Shown here: positions 19,421 through 37,946 of the stretch, one piece after another
How the letters are laid out: each line of letters starts with the position of its first letter
Position numbering within the stretch: the first letter of the stretch is position 1
Source: Bartonella sp. WD16.2
GTDB lineage: Bacteria > Pseudomonadota > Alphaproteobacteria > Rhizobiales > Rhizobiaceae
Assembly: GCF_002022505.1 (NCBI RefSeq)
Contig: NZ_CP019781.1
Location: 1,697,501 to 1,761,500, forward strand
DNA length: 64,000 nt
Direction: 5' to 3'
Made by a program: the position numbers and the translations under genes
Notes under the pieces: generated by a model
Told to the model about the DNA's origin: nothing
The model's input: only the letters and a program-made list of their open reading frames with translations
Databases searched by the model: none

Positions 19421-20506
19421 ATGAACGATATTGAACGTCTAGAACAAGAAATTTGTTTAGCTTTAGAAGCAGCCAATGATGAACAGGCACTTGAAGCGAT
19501 ACGTATTGCGGCATTGGGTAAAAAGGGTAGCATTTCTGAACAATTAAAAGCATTAGGGAAGATGGATGCTGATGAACGCCACAAAGTCGGACCGATACTT
19601 AATGGGTTAAAAAATCGTATTTTAGAGTTATGGTCGCAAAAGCGCGATATTCTCAAACGTCACGCAACAGCTGTACGTCTCTCTAAGGAAACAATTGATG
19701 TAACTTTGCCTGTTCGTTCTTCACCTATAGAGCGTGGTCGTATCCATCCTATTTCGCAAGTGATTGATGAAATCATAGCTATTTATGCGAATATGGGCTT
19801 TTCTATTGCGCAGGGGCCAGATATTGAAACGGATTATTATAATTTTACTGCATTGAATTTTCCTGAAAATCATCCAGCGCGCGAAATGCACGATACCTTC
19901 TTTTTTGATGTGGATGAAACGGGAAATCGGAAATTATTGCGTACGCACACATCGCCAGTACAAATTCGCGTGATGGAAAAGCAACAAACACCAATACGCA
20001 TCATTATTCCTGGAAAAACTTACCGTATGGATTCTGATGCAACGCATTCACCAATGTTTCATCAGGTGGAAGGATTGGTGGTTGATAAAACTTCTACTAT
20101 TGCACATATGATGTGGCTTCATGAAACTTTTTGTAAAGCTTTTTTCGAAGTATCTTCGGTAAGAATGCGTTTTCGCCCATCTTTTTTTCCTTTTACTGAA
20201 CCGTCTATGGAAGTAGACATTCAATGTAATCGTTCCGGTTCAGAAGTGAAGTTTGGAGAAGGTCGTGATTGGTTGGAGGTTTTAGGATGTGGCATGGTGC
20301 ATCCTCATGTGTTAAAGAATGCTGGCTTTGATCCGGATGAATATCAAGGATTTGCGTGGGGTATGGGGATTGATCGTATGGCTATGTTAAAATATGGCAT
20401 GCCTGATTTGCGGGCTTTTTTTGAGACTGATCTACGTTGGTTAAATCATTATGGTTTTCGTTGTTTTGATGTGCCTGCCCTTTTTACTGGCTTGAGCAGT
20501 GTATAA
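19421..20506 (+). CDS. pheS: Phenylalanine--tRNA ligase alpha subunit
   Basis: The 361-residue catalytic subunit of the (alpha-beta)2 enzyme activates Phe and charges tRNA-Phe. An N-terminal coiled-coil arm (about 1-85) is followed by the class II catalytic core with motif 2 region [12 protein letters not shown] (near 260) and motif 3 [14 protein letters not shown] (near 310-323). The beta subunit gene follows after 31 bases. Confidence 0.98.
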
Positions 20507-20537
20507 TTTTGTCACGGTTTTCATGTGAGGTTTTAAG

Positions 20538-22952
20538 ATGAAATTTACATTGTCTTGGTTGAAAGATCACTTAGAAACAGATGTATCTTTAGATGAAATT
20601 TGTAATAAACTGACAGCTATTGGTCTTGAGGTTGATCATGTTGAAGATTACGCTTTTTTAGCGGGTTTTGTGAATGCAAAGGTTTTAACAGCTGTAAAAC
20701 ATCCTGATGCGGATAAATTGCAAATTTTGTCAGTAGATACAGGATCTAGTGCACCTGTGCAAGTTGTGTGTGGAGCACCAAATGCACGTGTTGGGCTTGT
20801 TAGTGTTCTTGCATTGCCAGGCACTTATGTACCGGGGCTTGATGTGACATTATCTGTGGGGAAAATCCGTGGTGTTGATAGTTTTGGTATGATGTGTTCA
20901 TCAGCAGAACTTAAGTTGTTAGATGAACATGATGGGATTATTGAATTGCCAGAGGACGCTCCTCTTGGAGTGCCGTATGCAGATTATGCAGGTTTGAATG
21001 ATCCTGTGATTGATATTGGATTGACGCCTAATCGTTCTGATTGCACGGGTGTTCGTGGGATTGCTCGTGATTTAGCTGCAGCTGGCATTGGGCGATTAAA
21101 AGAATTATCGATACCGCAATTTGATACCTCTTTTGGAACATCGGTCCAAGTTACTTTGGATTTTTTTCAAAGTACCTCACTATGTTTAGGCTTTTCTTGG
21201 CGTGAAGTGCGTAATGTGCGAAATAATGCATCACCACAATGGATGCAAAGACGTTTGAATGCAATCGGTTTAAGACCGATTAATGCGCTGGTTGATACAA
21301 CAAATTATATAAGTTTTGATCTTGGTCGTCCACTTCATGTTTTTGATGCGGATAAGGTTAAAGGGGCTTTAAGAGTACGTCGTGGTTGTGAAGGTGAACA
21401 ACTTCAAGCTCTGAATGGTAAAATCTATAATTTAGGTACTAAGGATTGTGTCATTGCGGATGAAGAAGGGGTTGTTGCTATTGCTGGTATTATGGGTGGT
21501 GTCAGAACGAGTTGTGATGAAATGACACGCCGTGTTATTATTGAATCAGCTCTTTGGAATTCACGCAGTATTGCACAGACCGGTCGCGCATTAGGCCTTG
21601 TTAGCGATGCACGTTATCGGTTTGAACGGGGTGTTGATCCTGCTTTTATGGAATCAGGGCTTGAGATTGCCACACAGTTGGTGTTGAATCTTTGTGGTGG
21701 TGAGGTATCAAAAGCGCAGGTTGTTGGCTATCAGAAGCCAGAAGTTAAACAGATCAGCTTTCCATTTTCTGAAATTAAACGTTTAACTAATTTAGAAATA
21801 GAACGTGGAAAAGCCGTTGTTATTTTAAAACAGCTTGGATTTGGTATTAAAGGGGAAGGAGATGTCGTTACGGTTGAAGTGCCAACATGGCGCTTTGATA
21901 TTATGGGCAAAGCTGATTTAGTAGAAGAAGTGATACGAATTTATGGGCTGGATAAAATTAAACCTATACCATTGAAAGATTTTACTGGGGGAAATAATAA
22001 AATTCTAACGTTTTCGCAAATTGTTTCACGTGTTGCTCGTCGGGCTTTAGCGTGTAGAGGCATGGTGGAAGCTGTATCTTGGTCATTTATTTCTGAAAAT
22101 CAGGCGCTTACTTTTGGAGGTGGTCAAGCGCAGCTTAAATTGGTAAATCCTATTGCAACTGATATGTCGGTGATGCGCCCTTCTCTTTTGCCTGGTTTGC
22201 TTATTGCTGCACAGCGAAATGTTGATCGTGGTTTCCCGGATTTTGCCTTGTTTGAAGTTTCAAGCATCTATAAAGGTAATGCATCTGATGAACAACAGTG
22301 TGTTGCTGGTGGTATTCGCCGTGGTACAGCAAAATTTGAAGGTTCTGGACGTTTTTGGAGTGGAAATGCAAAGGCAGTTGATGTTTTTGATGCCAAAGCA
22401 GATGTATTGGCTGTTTTAGAAGCGTGTGGTGTAGATATTAGCAAAGTACAAATTGGGACTGAAACACCTGATTGGTATCATCCTGGTCGCTCAGGTGTTA
22501 TTAAGCTTGGACCAAAGGTTATTCTTGGTTTTTTTGGTGTTTTTCATCCTGATACATTAGAAAAATTAGATGTTAGCGATCCTTTATGCGGTTTTGAAGT
22601 TTTCCTTGACCAAATTCCGGAACCAAAGAAAAAAGCAACAAAAATTCGTTCTCCTTTAAAACTATCGCCTTTTCAAATGGTACGACGCGATTTTGCATTT
22701 GTGGTTGATAAAACAATAACATCTTCTCTAATTGTTAATGCTGCACGTGGGGCAGATAAAAAACTTATTCATTCAGTACAGATTTTTGATCTTTTTGAAG
22801 ATCCAAGTCTTGGTGAGGATAAAAAGTCTGTAGCGATTGAAGTTGCTATTCAACCCGTTGAACGAACCTTAACAGATGAAGATCTCGAAGAACTTGCTTT
22901 GAAGGTAGTGGAAAATGTTATTAAAGCGACGGGTGCATATTTGCGTTGCTGA
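20538..22952 (+). CDS. pheT: Phenylalanine--tRNA ligase beta subunit
   Basis: The 804-residue subunit supports tRNA binding and editing of misacylated Tyr-tRNA-Phe. Domains in order are the EMAP-like tRNA-binding domain (about 40-150), B3/B4 editing domain (about 210-385), B5 domain (about 405-475), a catalytic-like core, and the C-terminal anticodon-binding FDX-ACB domain (about 710-804). TGAGG upstream of the ATG serves as the ribosome binding site. It is co-transcribed with pheS. Confidence 0.98.
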
Positions 22953-24992: not shown

Positions 24993-25843
24993 TATCTTGG
25001 TTACTTGAGCCATTCAACTATCAATATATGGTCAATGCAATGTGGGTCTCGGGGTTAGTTGGGTGTGTTTGTGCGTTTCTTTCGGCTTTTCTAATGTTAA
25101 AGGGCTGGTCGTTGATTGGTGATGCACTTTCTCATTCGATTGTGCCTGGGGTTGCTGGGGCTTATCTTTTAGGATTGCCTTTTTCGCTTGGAGCTTTTTT
25201 CTCTGGTGGGGCTGCGGCTGCCGCGATGTTATTTCTTAACCATCGAACAAAACTGAAAGAAGATACGATTATTGGTTTAACTTTTTCCTCCTTTTTTGCT
25301 CTTGGATTGTTTTTAAAGTCATTAAAACCAATGGCTGTTAACATTGATACGATTGTTCTTGGAAATGTTTTAGCAATTAGTTCATCAGATATTATGCAGT
25401 TAGTTTGTATTAGTGTTTTCTCTTTGTTGATATTATGTGCGAAGTGGAAAGATTTATTAGTTTCTTTATTTGATGAAAGTCATGCACGTGCTCTTGGATT
25501 GAATGTAAAGCTATTGAAAATTCTCTTTTTTACGCTGCTTGCTGCTTGTACTGTTGCTGCTATGCAAACGGTAGGAGCTTTTTTGGTTATTTGTCTTGTG
25601 GTGACACCAGGGGCTACGGCTTATCTTTTAAATGATCGCTTTTTAAATCTTTTGATAATTGCAGTAGTAATTGGAACATTTACGAGTGTACTGGGTGTTT
25701 ATGTGAGTTATTTTTTAAATGCGCATACCGGTGGTGTTGTTGTGCTTTTTCAGGCGTTTCTGTTTATTATAGCTTTTATTTTTTCTCCAAAATACGGTTT
25801 TCTCGCTGCCCGTTTGCGTGTGAGAGTGGCAAAAAAAATATGA
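24989..25843 (+). CDS. sitC: Manganese/iron ABC transporter, permease
   Basis: The 284-residue inner-membrane protein of the ABC-3 family has about eight hydrophobic helices. Family features are the early [16 protein letters not shown] stretch, the ALGL coupling region, and the late [19 protein letters not shown] segment. It pairs with SitD to form the channel. Start and stop overlap its neighbours by four bases. Confidence 0.94.
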
Positions 25844-26751
25844 TAGATCAATTACTACTCCCTTTTCAGCTTTCTTTTATGATTAAGGGTATGGCTATTA
25901 CCGTTATTCTGTCCATTCCAATGGCTATGCTTTCTTGTTTTCTTATTTTAAAAGGGTGGGCGCTTTTAGGAGATGCGATTTCTCACGCAGTTTTTCCTGG
26001 TGTGGTTGTTGGTTATATGACAACACCGTGGGTGATAACATTTTTAGCTTCTTTGCCGTTTTCTTGGTTTCATCATCTACATCCCGCTAATGTTACGATG
26101 ATTTTAATTGTTTTTGGTGCTTTTATTGCTGGTATGATTTGTGCCATCACGACAGGTTTTTTAGGGAGCAATAGCCGTATAAAACAGGATACGGTCATGG
26201 GTGTTGTTTTTTCGTCTATGTTTGGTTTGGGGCTTGTTTTAGCAACGGCAATTTATAGTAATTTAGATTTAAATCACATCTTATTCGGTAATCTTTTGGG
26301 CGTTAATTGGCTTGATATTACGCAGACAGCAATAATTTCTATTATCGTCACTTTAATTTTGGGGACAAAATGGCGTGATTTTATGCTGTATATTTTTGAT
26401 TCGATTCAAGGACGTGCAATAGGATTACAGATATCAGTGCTCCATTATGCTCTGTTGACAATGATTTCTCTCACGATTGTTGCGGCTTTAAAAGCAGTTG
26501 GAATTATTTTGGTTATTTCTTTGTTGATTGCACCAGGAGCAATTGCTTATCTTATTACTAAGCGTTTTTTTTCTATGCTTTTGATTGCTGTATTGATTGC
26601 TGTTTTTTCTAGTTTTTTAGGAATTTATCTAAGCTTATTCATTGGTTCTGATTCTGCTTCTACAATTGTATTGATTTTGACACTAATCTTTGCTGCTGTT
26701 TTTATATGGATTTTTGTTCAACAGGCTGCAATTCGGGAAACACAAGTATAA
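25840..26751 (+). CDS. sitD: Manganese/iron ABC transporter, second permease
   Basis: The 303-residue ABC-3 permease is a paralogue of SitC, with the matching GWALLGDAISHAVFPG and GIILVISLLIAPGAIAYL blocks. Two different permeases plus one ATPase and one binding protein is the SitABCD/YfeABCD plan, which takes up Mn2+ and Fe2+. Last gene of the operon; a probable small RNA gene follows. Confidence 0.94.
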   Translation: MIDQLLLPFQLSFMIKGMAITVILSIPMAMLSCFLILKGWALLGDAISHAVFPGVVVGYMTTPWVITFLASLPFSWFHHLHPANVTMILIVFGAFIAGMICAITTGFLGSNSRIKQDTVMGVVFSSMFGLGLVLATAIYSNLDLNHILFGNLLGVNWLDITQTAIISIIVTLILGTKWRDFMLYIFDSIQGRAIGLQISVLHYALLTMISLTIVAALKAVGIILVISLLIAPGAIAYLITKRFFSMLLIAVLIAVFSSFLGIYLSLFIGSDSASTIVLILTLIFAAVFIWIFVQQAAIRETQV

Positions 26752-26820
26752 TAAATCCTTGCATAGCAGCCATGCGTTTTTATATGTTGTTTTAAATTTT
26801 TCTTTTTATTAAATGGAAGA

Positions 26821-26931
26821 GTGCTGGGTTATTTTCCTCCTAATATCTAGCCAATGAATGCAGTATTTTCTCCTCCCAACACTGCATTCGTAATTAAGGG
26901 GCTGCATTGATTTATCGTGCAGCCTTTTTAT
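26821..26931 (+). ncRNA. Probable AbcR/alpha-r15-type trans-acting small RNA
   Basis: A compact unit of about 110 bases has two unpaired anti-Shine-Dalgarno motifs and a strong terminator. The first motif is CCTCCT (26836-26841) in a weakly closed loop. The second is CTCCTCCC (26870-26877) in a 16-base loop closed by the perfect 9-bp stem GAATGCAGT/ACTGCATTC (26856-26864, 26881-26889). The terminator stem follows at 26900. This matches the plan of the Rhizobiales AbcR RNAs, Hfq-dependent repressors of ABC transporter mRNAs. The 5' end is estimated; a TTGTTT...TTAAAT pair near 26787-26814 may be its promoter. It could alternatively be only a long sitD 3' end. Confidence 0.6.
26900..26931 (+). 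terminator. Strong Rho-independent terminator after the small RNA
   Basis: GGCTGCA (26900-26906) pairs perfectly with TGCAGCC (26918-26924) around an 11-base loop and is followed by a T-rich tract. It would also end any read-through from sitD. Confidence 0.9.
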
Positions 26932-27135
26932 TTTTGAATGTCCTAAAAGCTTATTTTCATTTCTTGAAAACTTTTAAATGATCATCATATTGCATAAATT
27001 GTTCTACATTTTAGGCAATGGTCATTTTTGAAAATATGTTTGTTGATGGAGAGTATTCAGTAAGATTATGTGCTAAATATATAAAAGGCAAAATTTCACG
27101 TCATGGTATTTAAGTGAGAAAAGAAACAGCGATAA
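26932..27135. other. Spacer before the DUF454 gene
   Basis: AT-rich, no feature recognised apart from the presumed promoter of the next gene. Confidence 0.5.
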
Positions 27136-27555
27136 ATGATAGAAAAAAATTTTAAGATATCTCGCCCTTTACGAGTTTTTTATTCTATATTGGGTGGGGT
27201 GATGGTTTTATTAGGTTTGATAGGTGTGGTTTTACCTATTATGCCAACCGTACCTTTTCTGTTGGTTGCTTCATGGTGTTTTGCCCGTTCATCACCGCGG
27301 TTTCATTGTTGGTTGCATAATCATCGAATTTTTGGTCTACCCATTAAGCAATGGGAAGAAAAGAGAATCATCTCGCCTTTTGTTAAAATTTTTGCAGTGG
27401 TAAGTATGACCGGTGGCTTTTTATCATTTTTAATAATTGTACATCCTGCTTTATGGTTCGCTTTATCAGCTGCAATTATTTTGCTGGTAATCGCTATTTA
27501 TATTATGACGCGCCCATCCTCATCTACGTCGTCATCTTCATCATTACCAAAATAA
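27136..27555 (+). CDS. DUF454 (YbaN-like) inner membrane protein
   Basis: The 139-residue protein has three or so hydrophobic helices: about 16-40, a second around 82-102, and a third up to about 125. The DUF454 hallmark is the GLIGVVLPIMPTVPFLLVA stretch followed by WCFARSSPRFHCWL. Function is unknown. In other bacteria YbaN-like genes often sit near metal or haem genes, and here sitABCD precedes it, separated by a terminator. The tail is a Ser-rich run encoded by TCA/TCT-type repeats. Confidence 0.85.
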   Translation: MIEKNFKISRPLRVFYSILGGVMVLLGLIGVVLPIMPTVPFLLVASWCFARSSPRFHCWLHNHRIFGLPIKQWEEKRIISPFVKIFAVVSMTGGFLSFLIIVHPALWFALSAAIILLVIAIYIMTRPSSSTSSSSSLPK

Positions 27556-29354: not shown

Positions 29355-32300
29355 TCATTTTTTTGGAGTTGGGGATTTAAGAGTACGTATGATCTCATGA
29401 ACACCTGTTTTTTGTAGTTCTATACCTGTATCAATGTTAGCATATTCTTTGCTGTTAACACTGAGTGTATCTTTTGAAGCCCATTTAACTTTAATAATAT
29501 AAACAGCTTCATAAAATTTAATTTTTACTTCATATTCAGGCCAGCAAGAAGGCAAATGTGGACGTAAAAATAACTGATTGGCTTGGATGTGAATCCCAAG
29601 AATAGTTTCTGTCGCTGCACGATAAAACCAACCTGCTGAACCCGTATACCATGTCCAACCACCTCGTCCTCGATGTGGTTCAACAGCATAGATATCTGCG
29701 GCCATGACATAAGGTTCAACACGGTAAACTTCAGGATTTTGACCATGGGTGATAGGGTTTATCATGGAAAATAAGTTGTATGCTTTATCTATTTCACCTA
29801 TTTCTGCAAGTGCTATAATGCTCCAAATAGCACCATGAGTATATTGGCCACCATTTTCTCGAATTCCCGGTGGATATCCTTTAATATAGCCGGGCTCGAG
29901 AGTGCTTTTATTGAAAGGTGGCCAGAAAAGACGAATAAGCCCACTTTGTTCATCGCATAAGTGATCAAGCATTGACATCATTGCTTGTTTTTGGCGGTTG
30001 GGAGATGCCATTTTAGAAATTACAGCCCAAGATTGAACGATGGTATCAATTTGACATTCAGTATTTATTTGAGAACCAAGAGGGGTTGCATCATCAAAAT
30101 AACCACGTCGATACCAAGCGCCATCCCAACCATTTTTTTCCAGAGCTTTTGTTAAACGTTTAAGGTGTGTGCTCCATGCTTTAACGTGGTTATCGTCACC
30201 GCGGTTTTTAGCAATGGGAATGAATGCTTGTAATGTGGTACCAAGAAACCAGCCCAACCAAATACTTTCACCTTTTCCTTTCACGCCCACCAAATTCATA
30301 CCATCATTCCAATCACCACCTAAAATAAGTGGGAGGCCATGTGGACCACAACGTTTGATAGTAAGATCTAAAGCTAGAGCACAATGTTCATAAAGTGTTG
30401 CAATTTTTGATGATTGTGTGGGGTGAAAATAAGCATCGTGTTGCCTTGTTTTGAGAGGAGCTCCTTCAATAAAAGCAATAGGAGTATCAAGAAATGTATG
30501 CTCACCAGTAGTATTGACATAAAGGGCTGTTCCATAAGCAAGCCAGACTACGTCATCAGAAATGAGTGTACGAACACCAGCTTTAGTATCAGGAAACCAC
30601 CAATGTTGTACATCACCTTCAACAAATTGACGGGCTGCAGCGCTTAACAATTGTTCACGCGCTAATTGTGGTTTAAGTAGTAACAAAGATAAACTATCTT
30701 GTAACTGATCGCGAAAGCCAAATGCACCACTGGCTTGGTAGAAAGCTGCACGTGCTATCATACGGCATGCATAAATTTGATAAGGAAGCCAATGATTGAC
30801 CATAATGTCAAAAGAGGGATCAGGAGTTTTAACTTGCAAAGGAGAAACAAAATCATTCCATTGCTGTTTTTGTTGCGCAAGAATAACTTGAAAATCATTC
30901 ATACGCACTTGGTCCAGCAATTTTTCAGCTTCTTGTCTATTTTCAGCACTGCCAAGATAAAAGGTAATCTCTTTTGTTTGACCCGGTAATAGATAAATAT
31001 CATAAGCTGATGCTGAGCAAGGATCATGACCTGCTTCTACTGTATTTGAAAGTTCTTCAGCTTTGTAAATAGCATGAGGGTGTTTAACTGTTCCTATTGA
31101 ACCAATAAACTCAGTGCGATCAGTCGTAACACTGGTTGGTATTTCGGATGCTGATAAAAAAGTGACCTGTTGAGATCTTTCTATATGATAAGGATTTTGA
31201 ATAAAATGTGCACCACGTTTGGGATCGTAAGAGGGGATGATAAAGGGAGTGTATTTTGTACGTGCATTACCCAAAACCCACTCAGCGTAATTATAAAGAC
31301 GTAAGCTGCGTGGTTTTTTGCTTTCATTTTTAATAATAAGGCGTGAAAAACGAACAGGCCTTTCTCGATCGAGTGTATGGGTAAGTTCTAATGCAATATT
31401 GGAATGTGTGGATTTAAAAGTTGAAAATCCAAAACCATGACAAGCTTCGTAAACAACACTATCATTACATTCAACAGCAGAGACTGGAGAAAAACGTTTA
31501 AAGGAAAGACGATCAACAAGATACAATGCTTCTCCTGGGCGGTTGGAAACGGGGTCATTAGTCCAAGGGGTTAAGTGATAATCACGACTATTGTTAGCCC
31601 AGGTGAAAATTGCGCCCTCAGCTGATACGTAAAAGCCAAAACTGTGATTAGCAACTACATTAATCCACGGTTGTGGTGTGGTGGTATGTCCATTGAGATG
31701 CACCACATAATGATTATGCTGATTAAACCCTCCATAACCATTCCAGTAACGCAGGTCTTTTCCATTAATAAGAGGAAATGATTGTTTTTGTTGAGCTATA
31801 AGACCAATAGAAGTGGGTGAATTTTGTTCATTTTGCGTTTCTACTTGTCTTTTTTTGTCATGTTTGCTGTGATTTAGTTTGTGATTAAAATTTTGCCTAC
31901 TATTGCGAGTTATTAGATCGGAATCAATATTTTCTGTACATTTAAGCTGTTCAGATAAGGAACTATTTTGGGCATGAAGTATGATGCGGGCTGATGCAAG
32001 AAGTGTCTTGAAACTTTGCTCATTCATTTGATCACGTTGAAGGGTGAAAATGTGTTTATTTTCATTTATTTCGTTGGCATGACGACGATAGGATTCACAT
32101 GTCCATTCAATAGCGCGTTGAGTGTCTTGTATATAAGAAAATGCCTGTTCATTCAAAACAACCATATCAACAATTAACCCTCGCATACGCCAATATTCAT
32201 GTGCTTTAAGCAGGTCGCGTAGTACAGTTATATTCGTTTTACTATCAATTCTGAGAAGACAAATAGGATAATCTCCTGAGATGGACATTGGCCAAAGATC

Positions 32301-35300
32301 AGATTGTTTTCCAAGAGTATTAGCGAGCGTTTTAGAGGGAAGACGCCATGTTCGGTCGGGATATATAAGTGGTGTTGCATATTTTTGATAAGCAATAGCT
32401 TCTCTGGGACGGATATTGTTTTGAAATAGTGAAACTTGCGAGCGTGTCCATGTTATAGAAAATTCCCGCTGAAACATATTAGGTTGTCGATAACGTTCAA
32501 TATGATTTTGCAGCGTTTCTTTTGAATGAGCTGCAAATGTCCAAAAAATAAGTTCTCTTTTTTCATGTGCTGGAATTTTTAAATAACAGCGGATTGAGAT
32601 AATCGGGTCAAGAACACAGCCTTGCCGGTTACTAAAGTGGGCATTTTGATCAAATGCAGCTGGACGATGAATAGATCGACCACGACCAATAAAAATATAA
32701 CGGTCAGTTTCAGCTTCTGATTTTGGAATAGTTCCAGATGGGTCAGTGACAAAATGGGCAATATGAATATCCACGTCACTAGGGGCGCGTTTGCGCCTTT
32801 TAGCAAAAATCGTTCCACCTGAATCAGCAATTTCTGTTTCTACAAACATGTGTGAAAAAACAGGGTGAGCACAAACATTATCCATGGTTGCTAATGCTAG
32901 TTCACCATAAGATGTCACTTCAATCAGATGATCTTTATTGGTTGTATTCATAAGCTGAAGGCGCCTGCCTTCACCATCACCTTCAGATGCTACAAGACAT
33001 TCAAGAGTTGATTTTATACCATCAACCGTTTTTGTATATTCAGCTTTTTCATCTGTAAAAATGGTGACTGATTTTTCTTCAACAATGCGTGTTGGTTCAC
33101 CGGTGGCAGACCACCAGCGCCCATTTTGGGTATCACGTAGGAAAAACAAAGTACCTTGTTGATCTTCTGATGCATCAGGGATAAAGCGTGTGATAGCGTA
33201 ATCATGCCAACGGCTATAGCCGGAACCATTGGCTGTTAGCATTGTGGAATAACGACCATTAGATAAAAGCAAAGTTTCACGGGGTTTGAGAAGCGGGTTT
33301 GTGATAATGCGCAAAGGGGCATCATCAAATTCTCCAGAATCACTGCGCATTGGGTTGGCAACTTTGGTGTGAATGATAGGAATTTGACGGGGGGCTCTTT
33401 CTTGTAACAATAATTGTGCTGCTTCAATGACGGGATCACAATGAAAACGATTACGCATTCGTCCTTCAAAAATGACATTATTAATTGCAAGAATTGACAT
33501 GCCGTGATGGTGCGCATAATAATTACGCACGATAGCATATTGTTCTCCCTTTGGTATACGCGAAGGAGTAAAATCAATAGAATCATAATATCCATAGGCT
33601 CCTAAAGCACCAAGATCACGTAAACGTTTTAAATTTATGAGAGCTTGAGTTGGCATATATTGCGCAGCTAAAATGCTAGCGTAAGGAGCAATAACGGCAT
33701 TGCGTGATAAACCGCGTTGAAGTCCAAGGCTTGGAGCTCCAAAATTGGAGTATTGGTAATTCATTAAATGATCGCGTGCATTAAATGCAGCTTCTGAAAT
33801 ACCCCATGGCAGTCCCCGTTTATGGGCGTATTGTATTTGATGACGAATAATCAATCGATTGGTTTGATCTAGTATGGATCCTAGGGGTTCACGCATGACC
33901 AAAGAAGGCATAAGATATTCAAACATAGATCCCGACCATGATAATAAAGCACCTTTCCAACCAATTGGGATGAGTAAACGACCGAGATGAAACCAATGTT
34001 TGAATTTGATATCGCCTTTGGCAATGGCGAAAAGACTTGAGAGACGTGCTTCTGAAGCTAGAAGATCATAACAGCTTTCATCAAGTTTATTTTCCTGAAC
34101 ACGATAGCCAATAGACAAAAGTTGTCGTTCAGGTTGTTCTAAAAAGTCAAATTTCATATCAAAAGCTATTTGTCGTGCTTTTGTCGCTAAAGTATTTAAT
34201 TGTTTGCGCAGTTTTTCTATATCATAGTTATAGGTAATATCGTGGTGATGTGCTTCACAGGTTTCTACAAGACATTTAGCCCAAGACAACGCGTGGGCAG
34301 ATTCTACAGTTTGAATTTTTTTATCAAGTTCCTCTGTTAAGAACATAATATCACGAGCTAAGAGTGGAAGATTAGTAGTGCGGAGAGTTACAGTTTCTGT
34401 CTTTTCTTTGAAAATATTGATAACACGACGAAAGTGAGCAATGCGTTCTTCGATCTGTTGGTATAGGGAGCGTGAAAAATGCTGATTATCAGGAATCTCT
34501 TTTAAAGTTTCTTCAAGAATATCACTAACATCAAGTAAACCTTCTGGATCACTTTGTAAAAACATGTCAGGTGTTTCAGCCCATTCACTTAAAGCCGAAG
34601 AGAGTGTCACTAAATGACCGGCGAGATTACCTGAATCAACTGTTGAAACATAAGTTGGCAATAGAGGTTTAAGTGTGTCTGTTTCATACCAATTATAGAG
34701 ATGACCACGGAATTTTTCCATTTTTTCAAGGGTTCTTAATGTACGCTTGATGCGTGTAATAGCATCTTCAAAACTAATCCAACCAAAATCACGTGCGGCA
34801 ATAGTAGAGAGAAGATAAACTCCAATATTGGTAGGGGATGTACGCTGAGCAACAAGGGGTTCGGGATCTTCTTGAAAATTATCGGGTGGCAAATAATTGT
34901 TTTGCGCATTGACAAAAGTTGCGTAATAAAGCCACGTTCGTCGTGCAATACACCGAAGTGCTTTTTCATCTTCTGAGGATATATCAAGCATATCTTGAAA
35001 TGTTGCTGGTTGACTCACAATCCACGCGATGAGTGGTGAGAAAAACCAAACTAGTCCAAAGGGCAAAGCAATGAAGATTGTTGGGCTACAGAAGGATATA
35101 GGTAGCGCTATGGCAATTAAACCAATCAATGATGCTGGCCACATTGTGAGGATATAGAAGCTTAAACTATTAGGAATTAATTTTGTTGCAGCAGAGGTTT
35201 TCCATTCAAGCAGATGCTGTTTTGAAATCAGCATACGATAGAAAGTGCGGATAATTGCATCGGTTGTAAAATAAGCTGAATGAGCAATAAAAGTAGTTTT

Positions 35301-37946
35301 AAGAAGTATTTCTGCTGTCGTTGAAGTAATACTGCTCAAAATTAATTGCAGCTGTCCACGCAAAGAATGATCAAGACTGAATAGCATGAATGTCTGAAGC
35401 ATACTTAGAATTGGAGAGATAAATAGACTGATCAGCAAAAATATTTGCCAGATGGTTGCTATCTTTAATGATAAAATAGACCATCCCATGATTGCTGCAA
35501 TTAGCCATATAAGTGGTGTGAGAGAACGGCGTAGATTATCCTGGATCTTCCAGCGATTCATAAGATTAATTTGACAGCGCTTAAAAAGATAAGGTAATAA
35601 TTGCCAATCACCACGAATCCAACGATGATGACGAGCAACGTCAATGTTATAGGCTGTTGGATAATCCTCGATTACTTCCACATCACTTACGAGTGCTGCA
35701 CGTGCATAGCTACCCTCTAAAAGATCATGGCTAAGAACAGTATTTTCTTTGATTTTTCCATTAAGTGCTTGCTCAAATGCATTGATATTATAAAGACCTT
35801 TGCCGGTAAAAGTTCCTTCTCCCCAAAGGTCTTGATAAGTATCAGAGACAGCAAAGACATAAGGATCAATTCCACGATTAGTAGAAAAAATTTGTTGAAA
35901 AATTGATGTTTCTTTTCCTGTTGTAAGAGAAGGTGTAATACGTGGTTGTAAAATGCTGTAGCCTTTTACAATTGTTCCATTGTTGGGGTCAAAAACGGGA
36001 TGATTGAGTGGGTGGTTGAGCTTACCAACAAGTTTAGTAACTCCTTCAGGGGTTAGACGTGTATCTGAATCCAGGGTCATAACGAAACGACAATCTAGAG
36101 GAAGGCGTGGATCTGGAGTATAAAAACTCGTATTTTGATTTCCTCGTAGTAAAAGGTTGAGCTCATGAAGTTTACCACGTTTACGTTCCCATCCCATCCA
36201 GCATTTCTCGCTAGAATTGTAAAGGCGTCGGCGATGAAGAAGGAAAAATAAAGGAATGTTATCACGATGATAGCGGCGGTTAAGTTTAGCTATGCTCTCT
36301 TGTGCATAATGCAGCAAATCAAGATCATCTTGTGTTTCTTCTAATGAAGAATCTGCCCAGTCTGTGATTAACGCAAAATGAATAGCACCTTGCGGGTTAG
36401 AAAGATAATGTACTTCAAGATTACGTACTTGTTCATCAATATAATCATATGATGTAATTAAAGTAGGCACGACAACCATTGTACGTGCGTTTTTAGGAAT
36501 TCCCTCTTTATATTCATAACCAATGAGTTGATTTGGTGGGATAAACCATGAAACAACAGTGTTAAAAAAGGAAAAAGAAGCCTCCATGGCAGGAAAAAGT
36601 GCTAGAGCGGTAAAAGTAAGGTTCATCCGTGGCGGTAGATTGGATATTTGTAATAGAGTATAAGTTACAAGCAAAAGAATAAGCGTTAAAATAGAAACGG
36701 GAATTGCAATTGTTCCTACTTTTAAGCGATGGTAAGCGCGTATCCATCTTATAAAAAGGGGTGGAGTGTACCCACAAGCTTTTTCAAAGGCATAACGCCC
36801 GTTGTCAACAAGGTACCAGCCAATAGAAGAACTATTTTGATGAGCGTTATCCTCAAGAAAGATTTGCGTCATCTCTACAGCTTTGTGCGTAACTTCCAAC
36901 TCACTGAGCAAAGAATGGGATGCGATTTTTTCAATTACTTGTCGGTAGGTATTACGTGAATGAGAATCGAGTTCAGAAAAATCACTGTTTTGACGCAGAA
37001 TGGAGTCCACATGGCTAACGGTTTCAAACCACGCTGTCCAATCAATGTCATCAATAGTTTTGAGGGCACGAATAATATTGCCCATGGTCACACCGTCTTT
37101 TGCTTGACGGGTATGTTCATCAGCTGTTGCAATTTCTGGGTTACTACCGTGATGATGCAATTGCTTTTCAAGCCAAGTCAGTGCCATTGTAACATCAACA
37201 GATGCACCCCGCAGACGATAAAATAAATGAGTTGAAAAGGTTAAATTGGCAGTGAATTTTTCATAAAGAGTGAAAAGGTTGTGTAATTCAATCTCATCTT
37301 TCGCAAGGGTAATTTTGTTAGCCACTTGATTGGCGAGGTAGCGCATATGTTGTGCTTGCTCAATACGCAATGAAAGACGACGGACATTTTCAATTAAAAT
37401 CATACGAATAACAGAAGGCAAGGCCCACAATTCGCCAATTTTAAGGTTACATACTTCCTGAAAGCCATTAACCATAGCTGTAAGGGTTTCTTGTGAGAAA
37501 CTACTATCTGTATGGGCAATGTAAAGCCAGGTTAAAACAAAAATACGTGGAATCCCTTCTTTTTGTTCATCGAGAGGAAGTTTTTTAGTGAGAGTTTTTG
37601 GAAAATTACAGCGTAACTGTTGTATGGTTTTGTCAATGGTGTAATGATTATCAATAAGCCATTGAGCAGATGGTGCTATAGTTTCATTGTTACGTGCAGT
37701 AACATCACTCATGCGGAAAGCGTGGAGGATAAGTTTAGCATTTTCAGTTAATCGTTTGCGAAAATCACTCTCTCCCTTGTATTCAGGAAGAGAAATTTTT
37801 TTGCCCGAAGCTATATTATGGCCTAATTTATAAAGCTCTTCTTGCGATTTATCAGTTGAACGAATAGGGGAATTAGTTTCAGAAAAATAACAAATTTCTG
37901 TTTTTTGAGAAGAGAACCACTTCATGGAAAATAGTGTGGGTGCCAT
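29355..37946 (-). CDS. cgs: Cyclic beta-1,2-glucan synthase (NdvB/ChvB/Cgs type)
   Basis: A 2863-residue inner-membrane enzyme, the same size class as Brucella Cgs. Hydrophobic clusters lie at about residues 404-466, 812-857 and 924-979. Between the first two is the GT84 glycosyltransferase domain with the DxD element LDSDTR near 622. The long C-terminal half is a GH94-like phosphorylase/length-control module with GGDWNDGMN near 2545 and PHLPSCW near the end. It polymerises UDP-glucose on itself, trims and cyclises the chain, and releases periplasmic cyclic glucan, which matters for osmoadaptation and host interaction. The frame is fully open. An alternative Met start lies seven codons in. 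Confidence 0.96.
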   Translation of the reverse strand: MAPTLFSMKWFSSQKTEICYFSETNSPIRSTDKSQEELYKLGHNIASGKKISLPEYKGESDFRKRLTENAKLILHAFRMSDVTARNNETIAPSAQWLIDNHYTIDKTIQQLRCNFPKTLTKKLPLDEQKEGIPRIFVLTWLYIAHTDSSFSQETLTAMVNGFQEVCNLKIGELWALPSVIRMILIENVRRLSLRIEQAQHMRYLANQVANKITLAKDEIELHNLFTLYEKFTANLTFSTHLFYRLRGASVDVTMALTWLEKQLHHHGSNPEIATADEHTRQAKDGVTMGNIIRALKTIDDIDWTAWFETVSHVDSILRQNSDFSELDSHSRNTYRQVIEKIASHSLLSELEVTHKAVEMTQIFLEDNAHQNSSSIGWYLVDNGRYAFEKACGYTPPLFIRWIRAYHRLKVGTIAIPVSILTLILLLVTYTLLQISNLPPRMNLTFTALALFPAMEASFSFFNTVVSWFIPPNQLIGYEYKEGIPKNARTMVVVPTLITSYDYIDEQVRNLEVHYLSNPQGAIHFALITDWADSSLEETQDDLDLLHYAQESIAKLNRRYHRDNIPLFFLLHRRRLYNSSEKCWMGWERKRGKLHELNLLLRGNQNTSFYTPDPRLPLDCRFVMTLDSDTRLTPEGVTKLVGKLNHPLNHPVFDPNNGTIVKGYSILQPRITPSLTTGKETSIFQQIFSTNRGIDPYVFAVSDTYQDLWGEGTFTGKGLYNINAFEQALNGKIKENTVLSHDLLEGSYARAALVSDVEVIEDYPTAYNIDVARHHRWIRGDWQLLPYLFKRCQINLMNRWKIQDNLRRSLTPLIWLIAAIMGWSILSLKIATIWQIFLLISLFISPILSMLQTFMLFSLDHSLRGQLQLILSSITSTTAEILLKTTFIAHSAYFTTDAIIRTFYRMLISKQHLLEWKTSAATKLIPNSLSFYILTMWPASLIGLIAIALPISFCSPTIFIALPFGLVWFFSPLIAWIVSQPATFQDMLDISSEDEKALRCIARRTWLYYATFVNAQNNYLPPDNFQEDPEPLVAQRTSPTNIGVYLLSTIAARDFGWISFEDAITRIKRTLRTLEKMEKFRGHLYNWYETDTLKPLLPTYVSTVDSGNLAGHLVTLSSALSEWAETPDMFLQSDPEGLLDVSDILEETLKEIPDNQHFSRSLYQQIEERIAHFRRVINIFKEKTETVTLRTTNLPLLARDIMFLTEELDKKIQTVESAHALSWAKCLVETCEAHHHDITYNYDIEKLRKQLNTLATKARQIAFDMKFDFLEQPERQLLSIGYRVQENKLDESCYDLLASEARLSSLFAIAKGDIKFKHWFHLGRLLIPIGWKGALLSWSGSMFEYLMPSLVMREPLGSILDQTNRLIIRHQIQYAHKRGLPWGISEAAFNARDHLMNYQYSNFGAPSLGLQRGLSRNAVIAPYASILAAQYMPTQALINLKRLRDLGALGAYGYYDSIDFTPSRIPKGEQYAIVRNYYAHHHGMSILAINNVIFEGRMRNRFHCDPVIEAAQLLLQERAPRQIPIIHTKVANPMRSDSGEFDDAPLRIITNPLLKPRETLLLSNGRYSTMLTANGSGYSRWHDYAITRFIPDASEDQQGTLFFLRDTQNGRWWSATGEPTRIVEEKSVTIFTDEKAEYTKTVDGIKSTLECLVASEGDGEGRRLQLMNTTNKDHLIEVTSYGELALATMDNVCAHPVFSHMFVETEIADSGGTIFAKRRKRAPSDVDIHIAHFVTDPSGTIPKSEAETDRYIFIGRGRSIHRPAAFDQNAHFSNRQGCVLDPIISIRCYLKIPAHEKRELIFWTFAAHSKETLQNHIERYRQPNMFQREFSITWTRSQVSLFQNNIRPREAIAYQKYATPLIYPDRTWRLPSKTLANTLGKQSDLWPMSISGDYPICLLRIDSKTNITVLRDLLKAHEYWRMRGLIVDMVVLNEQAFSYIQDTQRAIEWTCESYRRHANEINENKHIFTLQRDQMNEQSFKTLLASARIILHAQNSSLSEQLKCTENIDSDLITRNSRQNFNHKLNHSKHDKKRQVETQNEQNSPTSIGLIAQQKQSFPLINGKDLRYWNGYGGFNQHNHYVVHLNGHTTTPQPWINVVANHSFGFYVSAEGAIFTWANNSRDYHLTPWTNDPVSNRPGEALYLVDRLSFKRFSPVSAVECNDSVVYEACHGFGFSTFKSTHSNIALELTHTLDRERPVRFSRLIIKNESKKPRSLRLYNYAEWVLGNARTKYTPFIIPSYDPKRGAHFIQNPYHIERSQQVTFLSASEIPTSVTTDRTEFIGSIGTVKHPHAIYKAEELSNTVEAGHDPCSASAYDIYLLPGQTKEITFYLGSAENRQEAEKLLDQVRMNDFQVILAQQKQQWNDFVSPLQVKTPDPSFDIMVNHWLPYQIYACRMIARAAFYQASGAFGFRDQLQDSLSLLLLKPQLAREQLLSAAARQFVEGDVQHWWFPDTKAGVRTLISDDVVWLAYGTALYVNTTGEHTFLDTPIAFIEGAPLKTRQHDAYFHPTQSSKIATLYEHCALALDLTIKRCGPHGLPLILGGDWNDGMNLVGVKGKGESIWLGWFLGTTLQAFIPIAKNRGDDNHVKAWSTHLKRLTKALEKNGWDGAWYRRGYFDDATPLGSQINTECQIDTIVQSWAVISKMASPNRQKQAMMSMLDHLCDEQSGLIRLFWPPFNKSTLEPGYIKGYPPGIRENGGQYTHGAIWSIIALAEIGEIDKAYNLFSMINPITHGQNPEVYRVEPYVMAADIYAVEPHRGRGGWTWYTGSAGWFYRAATETILGIHIQANQLFLRPHLPSCWPEYEVKIKFYEAVYIIKVKWASKDTLSVNSKEYANIDTGIELQKTGVHEIIRTLKSPTPKK

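What the first reader, a model, noticed from the sequence alone, without database searches (positions are those of the whole stretch)
26821..26931. Probable AbcR-type small RNA with two anti-Shine-Dalgarno loops after sitABCD
Seen: a CCTCCT motif, then CTCCTCCC in the loop of a perfect 9-bp stem, then a strong terminator, all within about 110 bases and with no protein frame. Known: Rhizobiales AbcR1/AbcR2 RNAs have this plan and silence ABC transporter mRNAs by pairing to their ribosome binding sites through Hfq. Inference: this is the Bartonella counterpart or an analogue, sitting next to an ABC transporter operon, and so could link metal supply to nutrient uptake.
Basis: partly seen in the sequence, partly recalled or inferred. 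Interest (0 to 1): 0.75.

Follow-up and report, generated by a model that had tools for sequence, protein, structure and literature searches.

The report
Bartonella ribosome-site-blocking small RNA

Summary
Window 26821-26931 folds into three hairpins, with CCUCCU in loop 1, CUCCUCCC in loop 2 and a terminator; the fold beats all 200 shuffles. The best Rfam match is ar14/NfeR1 (RF02344: full length, E 4e-6 in a 601-base search, 40.7 bits against a cut-off of 58.8); AbcR/ar15 does not match. My own model finds the gene in 71 of 71 genomes of the genus, downstream of sitD in 72 of 72 loci, and a deep-branching group passes the Rfam cut-off there. AbcR is a separate locus beside lsrB, decayed in the window's nearest relative. 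New points: the B. bacilliformis copy fits the published BbsR14; a LysR-type box stands at a fixed distance upstream, and the one LysR protein of G001 is LsrB; anti-SD loops fall from three to two to one across the genus, and in one clade loop 2 is a C-tract of varying length. Expression in this organism, targets and LsrB binding are inferred.

The parts
26760..26776 (+). LysR-type box TGCATAGCAGCCATGCG (GCAT-N3-AG-N3-T, imperfect palindrome), candidate LsrB/VtlR site
   Evidence: with a degenerate expression, 67 of 74 copies have it 51 nt upstream of the model start, 6 more within 2 nt of that, 1 none; pattern with up to 2 mismatches in 67 of 71 genomes, reversed control 0
26787..26815 (+). 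presumed promoter: TTGTTT (26787-26792), 17 nt, TAAATG (26810-26815); weak, inferred by eye
   Evidence: TTGT kept in at least 90% of the aligned upstream regions; not reported by the sigma-70 scan
26821..26931 (+). small RNA gene, ar14/NfeR1-derived, about 110 nt; 5' end inferred
   Evidence: Rfam RF02344 match 26817-26931; R1 match 26811-26934
26821..26852 (+). hairpin 1 with anti-SD loop UUCCUCCU
   Evidence: fold; helix 1: 4 of 7 pairs with changes on both sides
26854..26891 (+). hairpin 2 with anti-SD loop CUCCUCCC
   Evidence: fold; helix 2: 2 of 9 pairs with changes on both sides
26896..26931 (+). hairpin 3 and U-run, intrinsic terminator; its loop lacks the anti-SD motif present in the deep-branching group
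   Evidence: fold; loop table
25840..26751 (+). sitD, upstream neighbour (ABC-3 permease)
   Evidence: Pfam PF00950
27136..27555 (+). DUF454 gene, downstream neighbour
   Evidence: Pfam PF04304

Best explanation
A trans-acting small RNA, orthologous across Bartonella and descended from the ar14/NfeR1 (CCUCCUCCC, 'cuckoo') family. Shown: locus, structure, conservation and a LysR-type box at a fixed distance upstream. Inferred from NfeR1: it is transcribed from its own promoter under the LysR-type regulator LsrB/VtlR, and its exposed anti-SD loops pair with the Shine-Dalgarno region of chosen mRNAs, blocking ribosome entry and lowering their expression. In the window's group the third loop has no seed and AbcR has decayed, so this RNA may be the main anti-SD regulator left.
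For: Full-length ar14 match; over-cut-off ar14 matches downstream of sitD in 14 deep-branching genomes; 71 of 71 genomes by own model, 37 of them not used to build it; sitD upstream on the same strand in 72 of 72 loci; covariation; each of 74 copies keeps at least one CCTCC loop; box at a fixed distance, and at -56/-57 in 4 of 14 Rhizobiaceae ar14 loci without a DUF1127 gene in front, against 0 of 16 with one; the only TTCCTCCTAA pair of both B. bacilliformis genomes lies here, fitting the expressed, pH-regulated BbsR14; the single LysR protein of G001 matches A. tumefaciens LsrB, PDB 9HH1, E 3e-136; LsrB binds the NfeR1 promoter and NfeR1 represses ntrB through its anti-SD seeds (PMC10746234, section 5, passages).
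Against: The window score is below the Rfam cut-off and the third seed is missing. No transcript data for this organism. The box differs from the published VtlR consensus at one base (TG to AG) and lies at -57 to -41 from the ar14 model start, against -72 to -60 from the NfeR1 start site in the paper. 10 of 14 Rhizobiaceae loci without DUF1127 lack the box at that place. The extended complement of loop 1 is not enriched in the genus (29 hits outside the RNA gene against 69 for the control), so no specific target emerged.
Confidence: 0.85

Rival explanations
1. It is an AbcR (ar15) RNA or its direct counterpart, binding Hfq and silencing ABC transporter mRNAs through M1 and M2.
For: Contains CUCCCA (M1-like) at 26873; NfeR1 too is predicted to target transport mRNAs (PMC10746234 and PMC7143759, passages).
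Against: No ar15 match at E up to 10; M2 absent in 74 of 74; a separate AbcR locus beside lsrB carries M1 and M2.
Confidence: 0.03
2. It is only the 3' untranslated region and terminator of the sit operon mRNA, with anti-SD loops by chance or by processing from that mRNA.
For: It begins about 70 nt after sitD and no terminator was found between them (a scan that also missed the RNA's own terminator); its terminator could end sit transcription too.
Against: Own box and spacing; in the two deep-branching genomes examined another gene lies between sitD and the RNA, and the distance from the sitD match is 928-1293 nt in all 14 of that group; a CCTCC loop kept in 74 of 74.
Confidence: 0.1
3. A variant of the best explanation, not exclusive of its first half: the RNA acts on translation broadly (a general brake or SD sponge) rather than on chosen targets, as the BbsR14 authors speculated.
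For: Seeds are nearly pure anti-SD; extended loop complement not enriched; PMC7717549 passages.
Against: NfeR1, with similar seeds, has a defined target, ntrB, and predicted ones (PMC10746234, passages).
Confidence: 0.25

Closest known systems
ar14 family / NfeR1 (Smr14C2, RF02344) of Sinorhizobium meliloti; 'cuckoo' RNAs
   Same: Three-hairpin plan, anti-SD loops, length, standalone gene, LysR-type box upstream, orthologous over-cut-off copies in the deep-branching Bartonella group
   Different: Window scores 40.7 against cut-off 58.8; loop 3 has no anti-SD, loop 1 has CCUCCU instead of CCUCCUCCC; one copy found in the window's nearest relative, against six in S. meliloti (PMC7143759, passages)
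BbsR14 of Bartonella bacilliformis (PMC7717549, passages seen)
   Same: Two stem-loops with TTCCTCCTAA; the only such pair in both B. bacilliformis genomes lies at this locus, so very probably the ortholog
   Different: The main text names no ar14, NfeR1, cuckoo or AbcR (0 occurrences); B. bacilliformis has a second, tandem copy; the supplement with coordinates was not readable here
AbcR1/AbcR2 (ar15, RF02345)
   Same: Anti-SD loop, candidate LsrB control, expected mode of action
   Different: Other family and locus, M1 and M2 motifs (PMC5461406, passages); contrasted with Hfq-independent NfeR1 in PMC10746234
Rhodobacter RS0680a and other CCUCCUCCC RNAs (RS0680a from PMC3927594 section 21; its DUF1127 gene context is recalled)
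   Same: Anti-SD loops; RS0680a has two stem-loops
   Different: Encoded after a DUF1127 gene; the window copy follows sitD
RepG of Helicobacter pylori (PMC8295292, start of abstract seen in the listing)
   Same: Small-RNA pairing that involves a homopolymer
   Different: There the G-tract of the mRNA varies; here, in one Bartonella clade, the C-tract of the RNA varies

Membership tests
ar14 (RF02344) | Covariance score at or above the gathering cut-off (58.8) | tested here: not met
   40.7 bits in the window; met in 14 of 71 genomes of the genus, downstream of sitD
ar14 (RF02344) | Three hairpins, each with CCUCCUCCC in its loop | tested here: not met
   Three hairpins yes; loop 2 CUCCUCCC, loop 1 CCUCCU, loop 3 none; CCTCC in all three loops in 14 of 74 copies
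ar14 (RF02344) | Descent: orthologous locus with full members | tested here: met
   Downstream of sitD in 72 of 72 loci, same box, alignable throughout
ar14 (RF02344) | Conserved LsrB-type box upstream | tested here: met
   one base off the VtlR consensus; in Rhizobiaceae only 4 of 30 loci have it at -56/-57; binding not testable here
ar14 (RF02344) | Represses targets through anti-SD seeds, without Hfq | not testable with these tools
   needs experiment
AbcR (ar15, RF02345) | ar15 covariance match | tested here: not met
   none at E up to 10 in 26600-27200
AbcR (ar15, RF02345) | M1 CUCCCA in hairpin 1 and M2 GUUCCC between hairpins 1 and 2 | tested here: not met
   CUCCCA lies in hairpin 2; GUUCCC absent; definition from PMC5461406
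AbcR (ar15, RF02345) | Locus next to lsrB (as seen here for Bartonella AbcR) | tested here: not met
   Window copy lies by sitD; the AbcR-like RNA follows the lsrB homologue in G057 and in 10 of 12 weak-hit loci fetched
AbcR (ar15, RF02345) | Hfq binding | not testable with these tools
   An Hfq gene in G001 only shows that it is possible

The most novel reading that the evidence does not exclude
Bartonella has reduced its LysR-driven anti-SD RNA network to one regulator (LsrB) and, in the window's group, one RNA, this one; and in a large sister clade the second seed has become a hypermutable C-tract (5-11 C) whose slippage changes targeting between cells: a phase-variable small-RNA seed, the mirror image of H. 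pylori RepG.
Probability: 0.15. Interest if true: 0.75.

Novelty: new variant of a known kind. Interest (0 to 1): 0.5.

Why it matters
It puts a named family, a probable regulator and a testable mode of action on an RNA that is present in all 71 genomes of the genus searched and was reported in one species as an RNA of no named family. It also offers a natural series (three, two and one anti-SD loops) for asking how many seeds such an RNA needs, and whether redox control by LsrB has shifted from AbcR to this RNA in some lineages.

Tried and rejected
AbcR membership: rejected. Link to the sit operon: duplex energies of the two loops with the starts of sitA-D were -3.2 to -8.6 kcal/mol, where shuffled loop 1 gave means of -3.5 to -8.1 and a canonical SD gives -10.5 to -10.8; sitC with loop 1 (-5.8 against -3.5) was the only sit start clearly better than shuffled. 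I reject them as direct targets (nine genes near the RNA only, only loop 1 shuffled). Extended loop-1 targets: TTAGGAGGAAAA gave 81 hits in 51 of 71 genomes, 52 of them the RNA gene itself and 29 elsewhere, against 69 for the control pattern (counted by hand): no enrichment. Sigma-70 scan: no site at 26787-26815. Plasmid search with 26700-27200: no match. A genome-wide target prediction was not done: the window's own assembly is not held. Del Val 2012 and Reinkensmeier 2015 are not held, so the founding descriptions were seen only through PMC10746234, PMC7143759 and PMC3927594.

In print: the listings showed no title or abstract start that names an ar14/NfeR1 RNA in Bartonella; I looked into the papers named in this report, and into PMC5387305 and PMC8070961 by passages, only; (whole words r14, Bartonella, sRNA) returned 0 papers but does not match 'Bartonellaceae' or 'sRNAs'. 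Against novelty: PMC3927594 (section 16) lists Bartonellaceae among families covered jointly by seven models that include two CCUCCUCCC models, without saying which, so an earlier tabulation cannot be excluded; PMC7143759 (passages) gives ar14 as represented in Rhizobiaceae, Brucellaceae and Phyllobacteriaceae; PMC5596092 (passages) mentions a Mesorhizobium RNA, MH_s11, with homologues in Bartonella, which I did not identify.

Full report
Names used. 'Mammal-type' means the other 57. The window groups with G001, G013, G030 and G039.

What is there. The stretch 26821-26931 folds into three hairpins with CCUCCU and CUCCUCCC unpaired in the first two loops and a terminator at the end (-36.9 kcal/mol, z -4.96, 0 of 200 shuffles as good). 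No other pair of such motifs 10-80 nt apart exists in the window on either strand. All three + frames are stopped; one minus frame is open across the stretch in the window, but in 57 of 74 copies no minus frame is open over the whole match. It lies between sitD (ends 26751) and a DUF454 gene (starts 27136).

Which family. The gathering-level Rfam scan of the window returns only a tRNA. A permissive scan of 601 bases gives ar14 (RF02344) over its full length, 40.7 bits, E 4.2e-6, below the cut-off of 58.8; ar15 (AbcR) is not among the matches at E up to 10. In 71 genomes of the genus ar14 rings in 41 at E <= 1 and over the cut-off in 14 (strict filters). sitD lies upstream on the same strand in 72 of 72 loci (window and one per genome): 63-77 nt from the model start in 57 of the 58 mammal-type loci (window included; 339 nt in one tandem case, measured to the second copy), 928-1293 nt in the 14 others, measured from the end of the sitD match. 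DUF454 follows on the same strand in 56 of 58 mammal-type loci and on the opposite strand in 2 of 14 others; in the remaining 14 loci it was not seen in the fetched flank. So over-cut-off members and the window copy are orthologous.

Own model. A model from 35 copies (window plus 34 genomes) finds 71 of 71 genomes at E <= 0.01; 37 of these were not in the training set, and the weakest best match among them is E 9.5e-15. The 72 sources give 74 matches, because G008 and G009 carry two in tandem; a duplicate contig copy in G053 was left out. 99.2% of pair cells are standard pairs against 25-49% when partners are slid; 8 of 25 pairs have changes on both sides. The alignment is fitted to the model, which favours it.

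BbsR14. The B. bacilliformis paper (PMC7717549, passages) describes an RNA found by RNA-seq, BbsR14, with two stem-loops of TTCCTCCTAA, higher at pH 8 than at pH 6. The pattern TTCCTCCTAA-N20-50-TTCCTCCTAA occurs once in G008 and once in G009, both at this locus, and not in G001. G008 is the sister of G009, and I recall its contig length as that of strain KC583, the strain of the paper. The identity with BbsR14 is strong inference; its coordinates were not readable.

Promoter. A box TGCATAnCAGnnATGC, sought with a degenerate expression written after seeing the sequences, stands 51 nt upstream of the model start in 67 of 74 copies, within 2 nt of that in 6 and is unmatched in 1. With up to 2 mismatches the longer pattern is found in 67 of 71 genomes (not G009, G059, G060, G061), by eye always at the RNA locus apart from one extra hit in G023; the reversed control gave 0. 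PMC10746234 (section 5) reports that LsrB binds the NfeR1 promoter at a TGCA-N6-GCAT motif; the VtlR/LsrB consensus is GCAT-N3-TG-N3-T (PMC7486931 and PMC8844928, passages). The Bartonella box reads GCAT-N3-AG-N3-T, one base off. Of 30 Rhizobiaceae ar14 loci, 16 follow a DUF1127 gene and none of these has the box; of the 14 others 4 have it at -56/-57, 1 at -96 and 9 not. The exact consensus stands at -61 in 6 of 6 AbcR promoters of the deep-branching group that were fetched (of 14).

Regulator. G001, G008 and G043 each have one match to the LysR substrate domain; G057 of the deep-branching group has 11 (4 genomes searched). The G001 protein has an HTH domain and matches PDB 9HH1 over 299 residues, E 3.2e-136; 9HH1 is A. 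tumefaciens LsrB (PMC11975290, passages). Its neighbour is thioredoxin reductase (TIGR01292), as the paper says for lsrB. The C-terminal 197-225 residues of the three mammal-type proteins are 71-73% identical to the G057 protein that precedes AbcR.

AbcR. ar15 is over its cut-off in 14 of 71 genomes, weak in 23 more and without a match at E <= 1 in 34, including G001, G013, G030 and G039. Downstream of lsrB, G057 has an intact AbcR; read by eye, G001 shows a remnant without the anti-SD motif and without the terminator, and G008 none that I recognise. In 10 of 12 weak-hit loci fetched, the lsrB homologue lies by the hit, and several of these AbcR-like RNAs look intact.

Loop evolution. Of 74 copies, 14 have CCTCC in all three loops, 18 in loops 1 and 2 (window among them), 38 in loop 1 with a C-run in loop 2, 3 in loop 1 only, and 1 (L142, G010) in loop 2 only; none has lost all. 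On a sitD tree of 71 rows (72 sources; L006 dropped because its sitD piece is short) the three-loop rows are one group and the C-run rows lie in one clade of 42 rows, of which 38 have a C-run (root at the midpoint). C-runs are 5 to 11 long and differ between close relatives (6 and 11 in L055 and L124). This suggests slippage; variation within a strain was not tested, and assembly error in homopolymers is possible. The window itself has no C-run.

Mechanism and limits. By analogy with NfeR1, the loops occupy ribosome binding sites. The two loops bind a canonical SD with -10.5 and -10.8 kcal/mol. No targets were established: sit starts are unremarkable and the full loop-1 complement is not enriched. 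An Hfq gene exists in G001, but NfeR1 is called Hfq-independent (PMC10746234, passages).

Verdict. Real, conserved, known in kind, but a diverged variant: an ar14-derived two-loop RNA, not AbcR. The probable LsrB link and the C-tract clade are the interesting parts.

Noticed in passing
A2 copies of the clade of 42 rows, e.g. L055, L124, L058, L099, L136: Loop 2 has become a C-tract of 5-11 (38 of 42 rows) that differs in length between close relatives, as if slippage-prone.
   Followed up: partly
L142 (G010), 1501-1628 minus: Loop 1 has lost CCTCC (CATCC) while loop 2 has CCTCCC, although its nearest kin on the tree have C-runs there: a reciprocal swap of seeds.
   Followed up: partly
L143 and L144 (G009, G008), 1501-1898 minus: Tandem duplication of the RNA gene with its box (the box of the second copy in L143 is altered); the second copy has a degenerate loop 2.
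   Followed up: partly
L037-L049: Second ar14-like matches in 13 deep-branching genomes directly follow a DUF1127 gene (13 of 13 by tblastn; Pfam on one); so do 16 of 30 Rhizobiaceae loci.
   Followed up: partly
L230, L228, L229 against L237: AbcR beside lsrB looks decayed or missing, by eye, in the three mammal-type genomes examined, intact in the deep-branching genome.
   Followed up: partly
L146 3280-4056 minus, L145 1790-2587 plus: In these two deep-branching genomes a glycosyltransferase family 25 gene lies between sitD and the RNA (PF01755).
   Followed up: partly
L146 4117-5372 minus: In G057 the sitD-sitB region reads as short frames, as if the sit operon were broken there while the RNA is kept; by eye only.
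   Followed up: no
29355-37946: A frame of about 2860 aa with GH94 supersandwich and catalytic domains and a glycoamylase domain, as in cyclic beta-glucan synthases (recalled).
   Followed up: no
19421-22952: Two phenylalanyl-tRNA synthetase chains (pheS, pheT) lie upstream of the sit operon.
   Followed up: no
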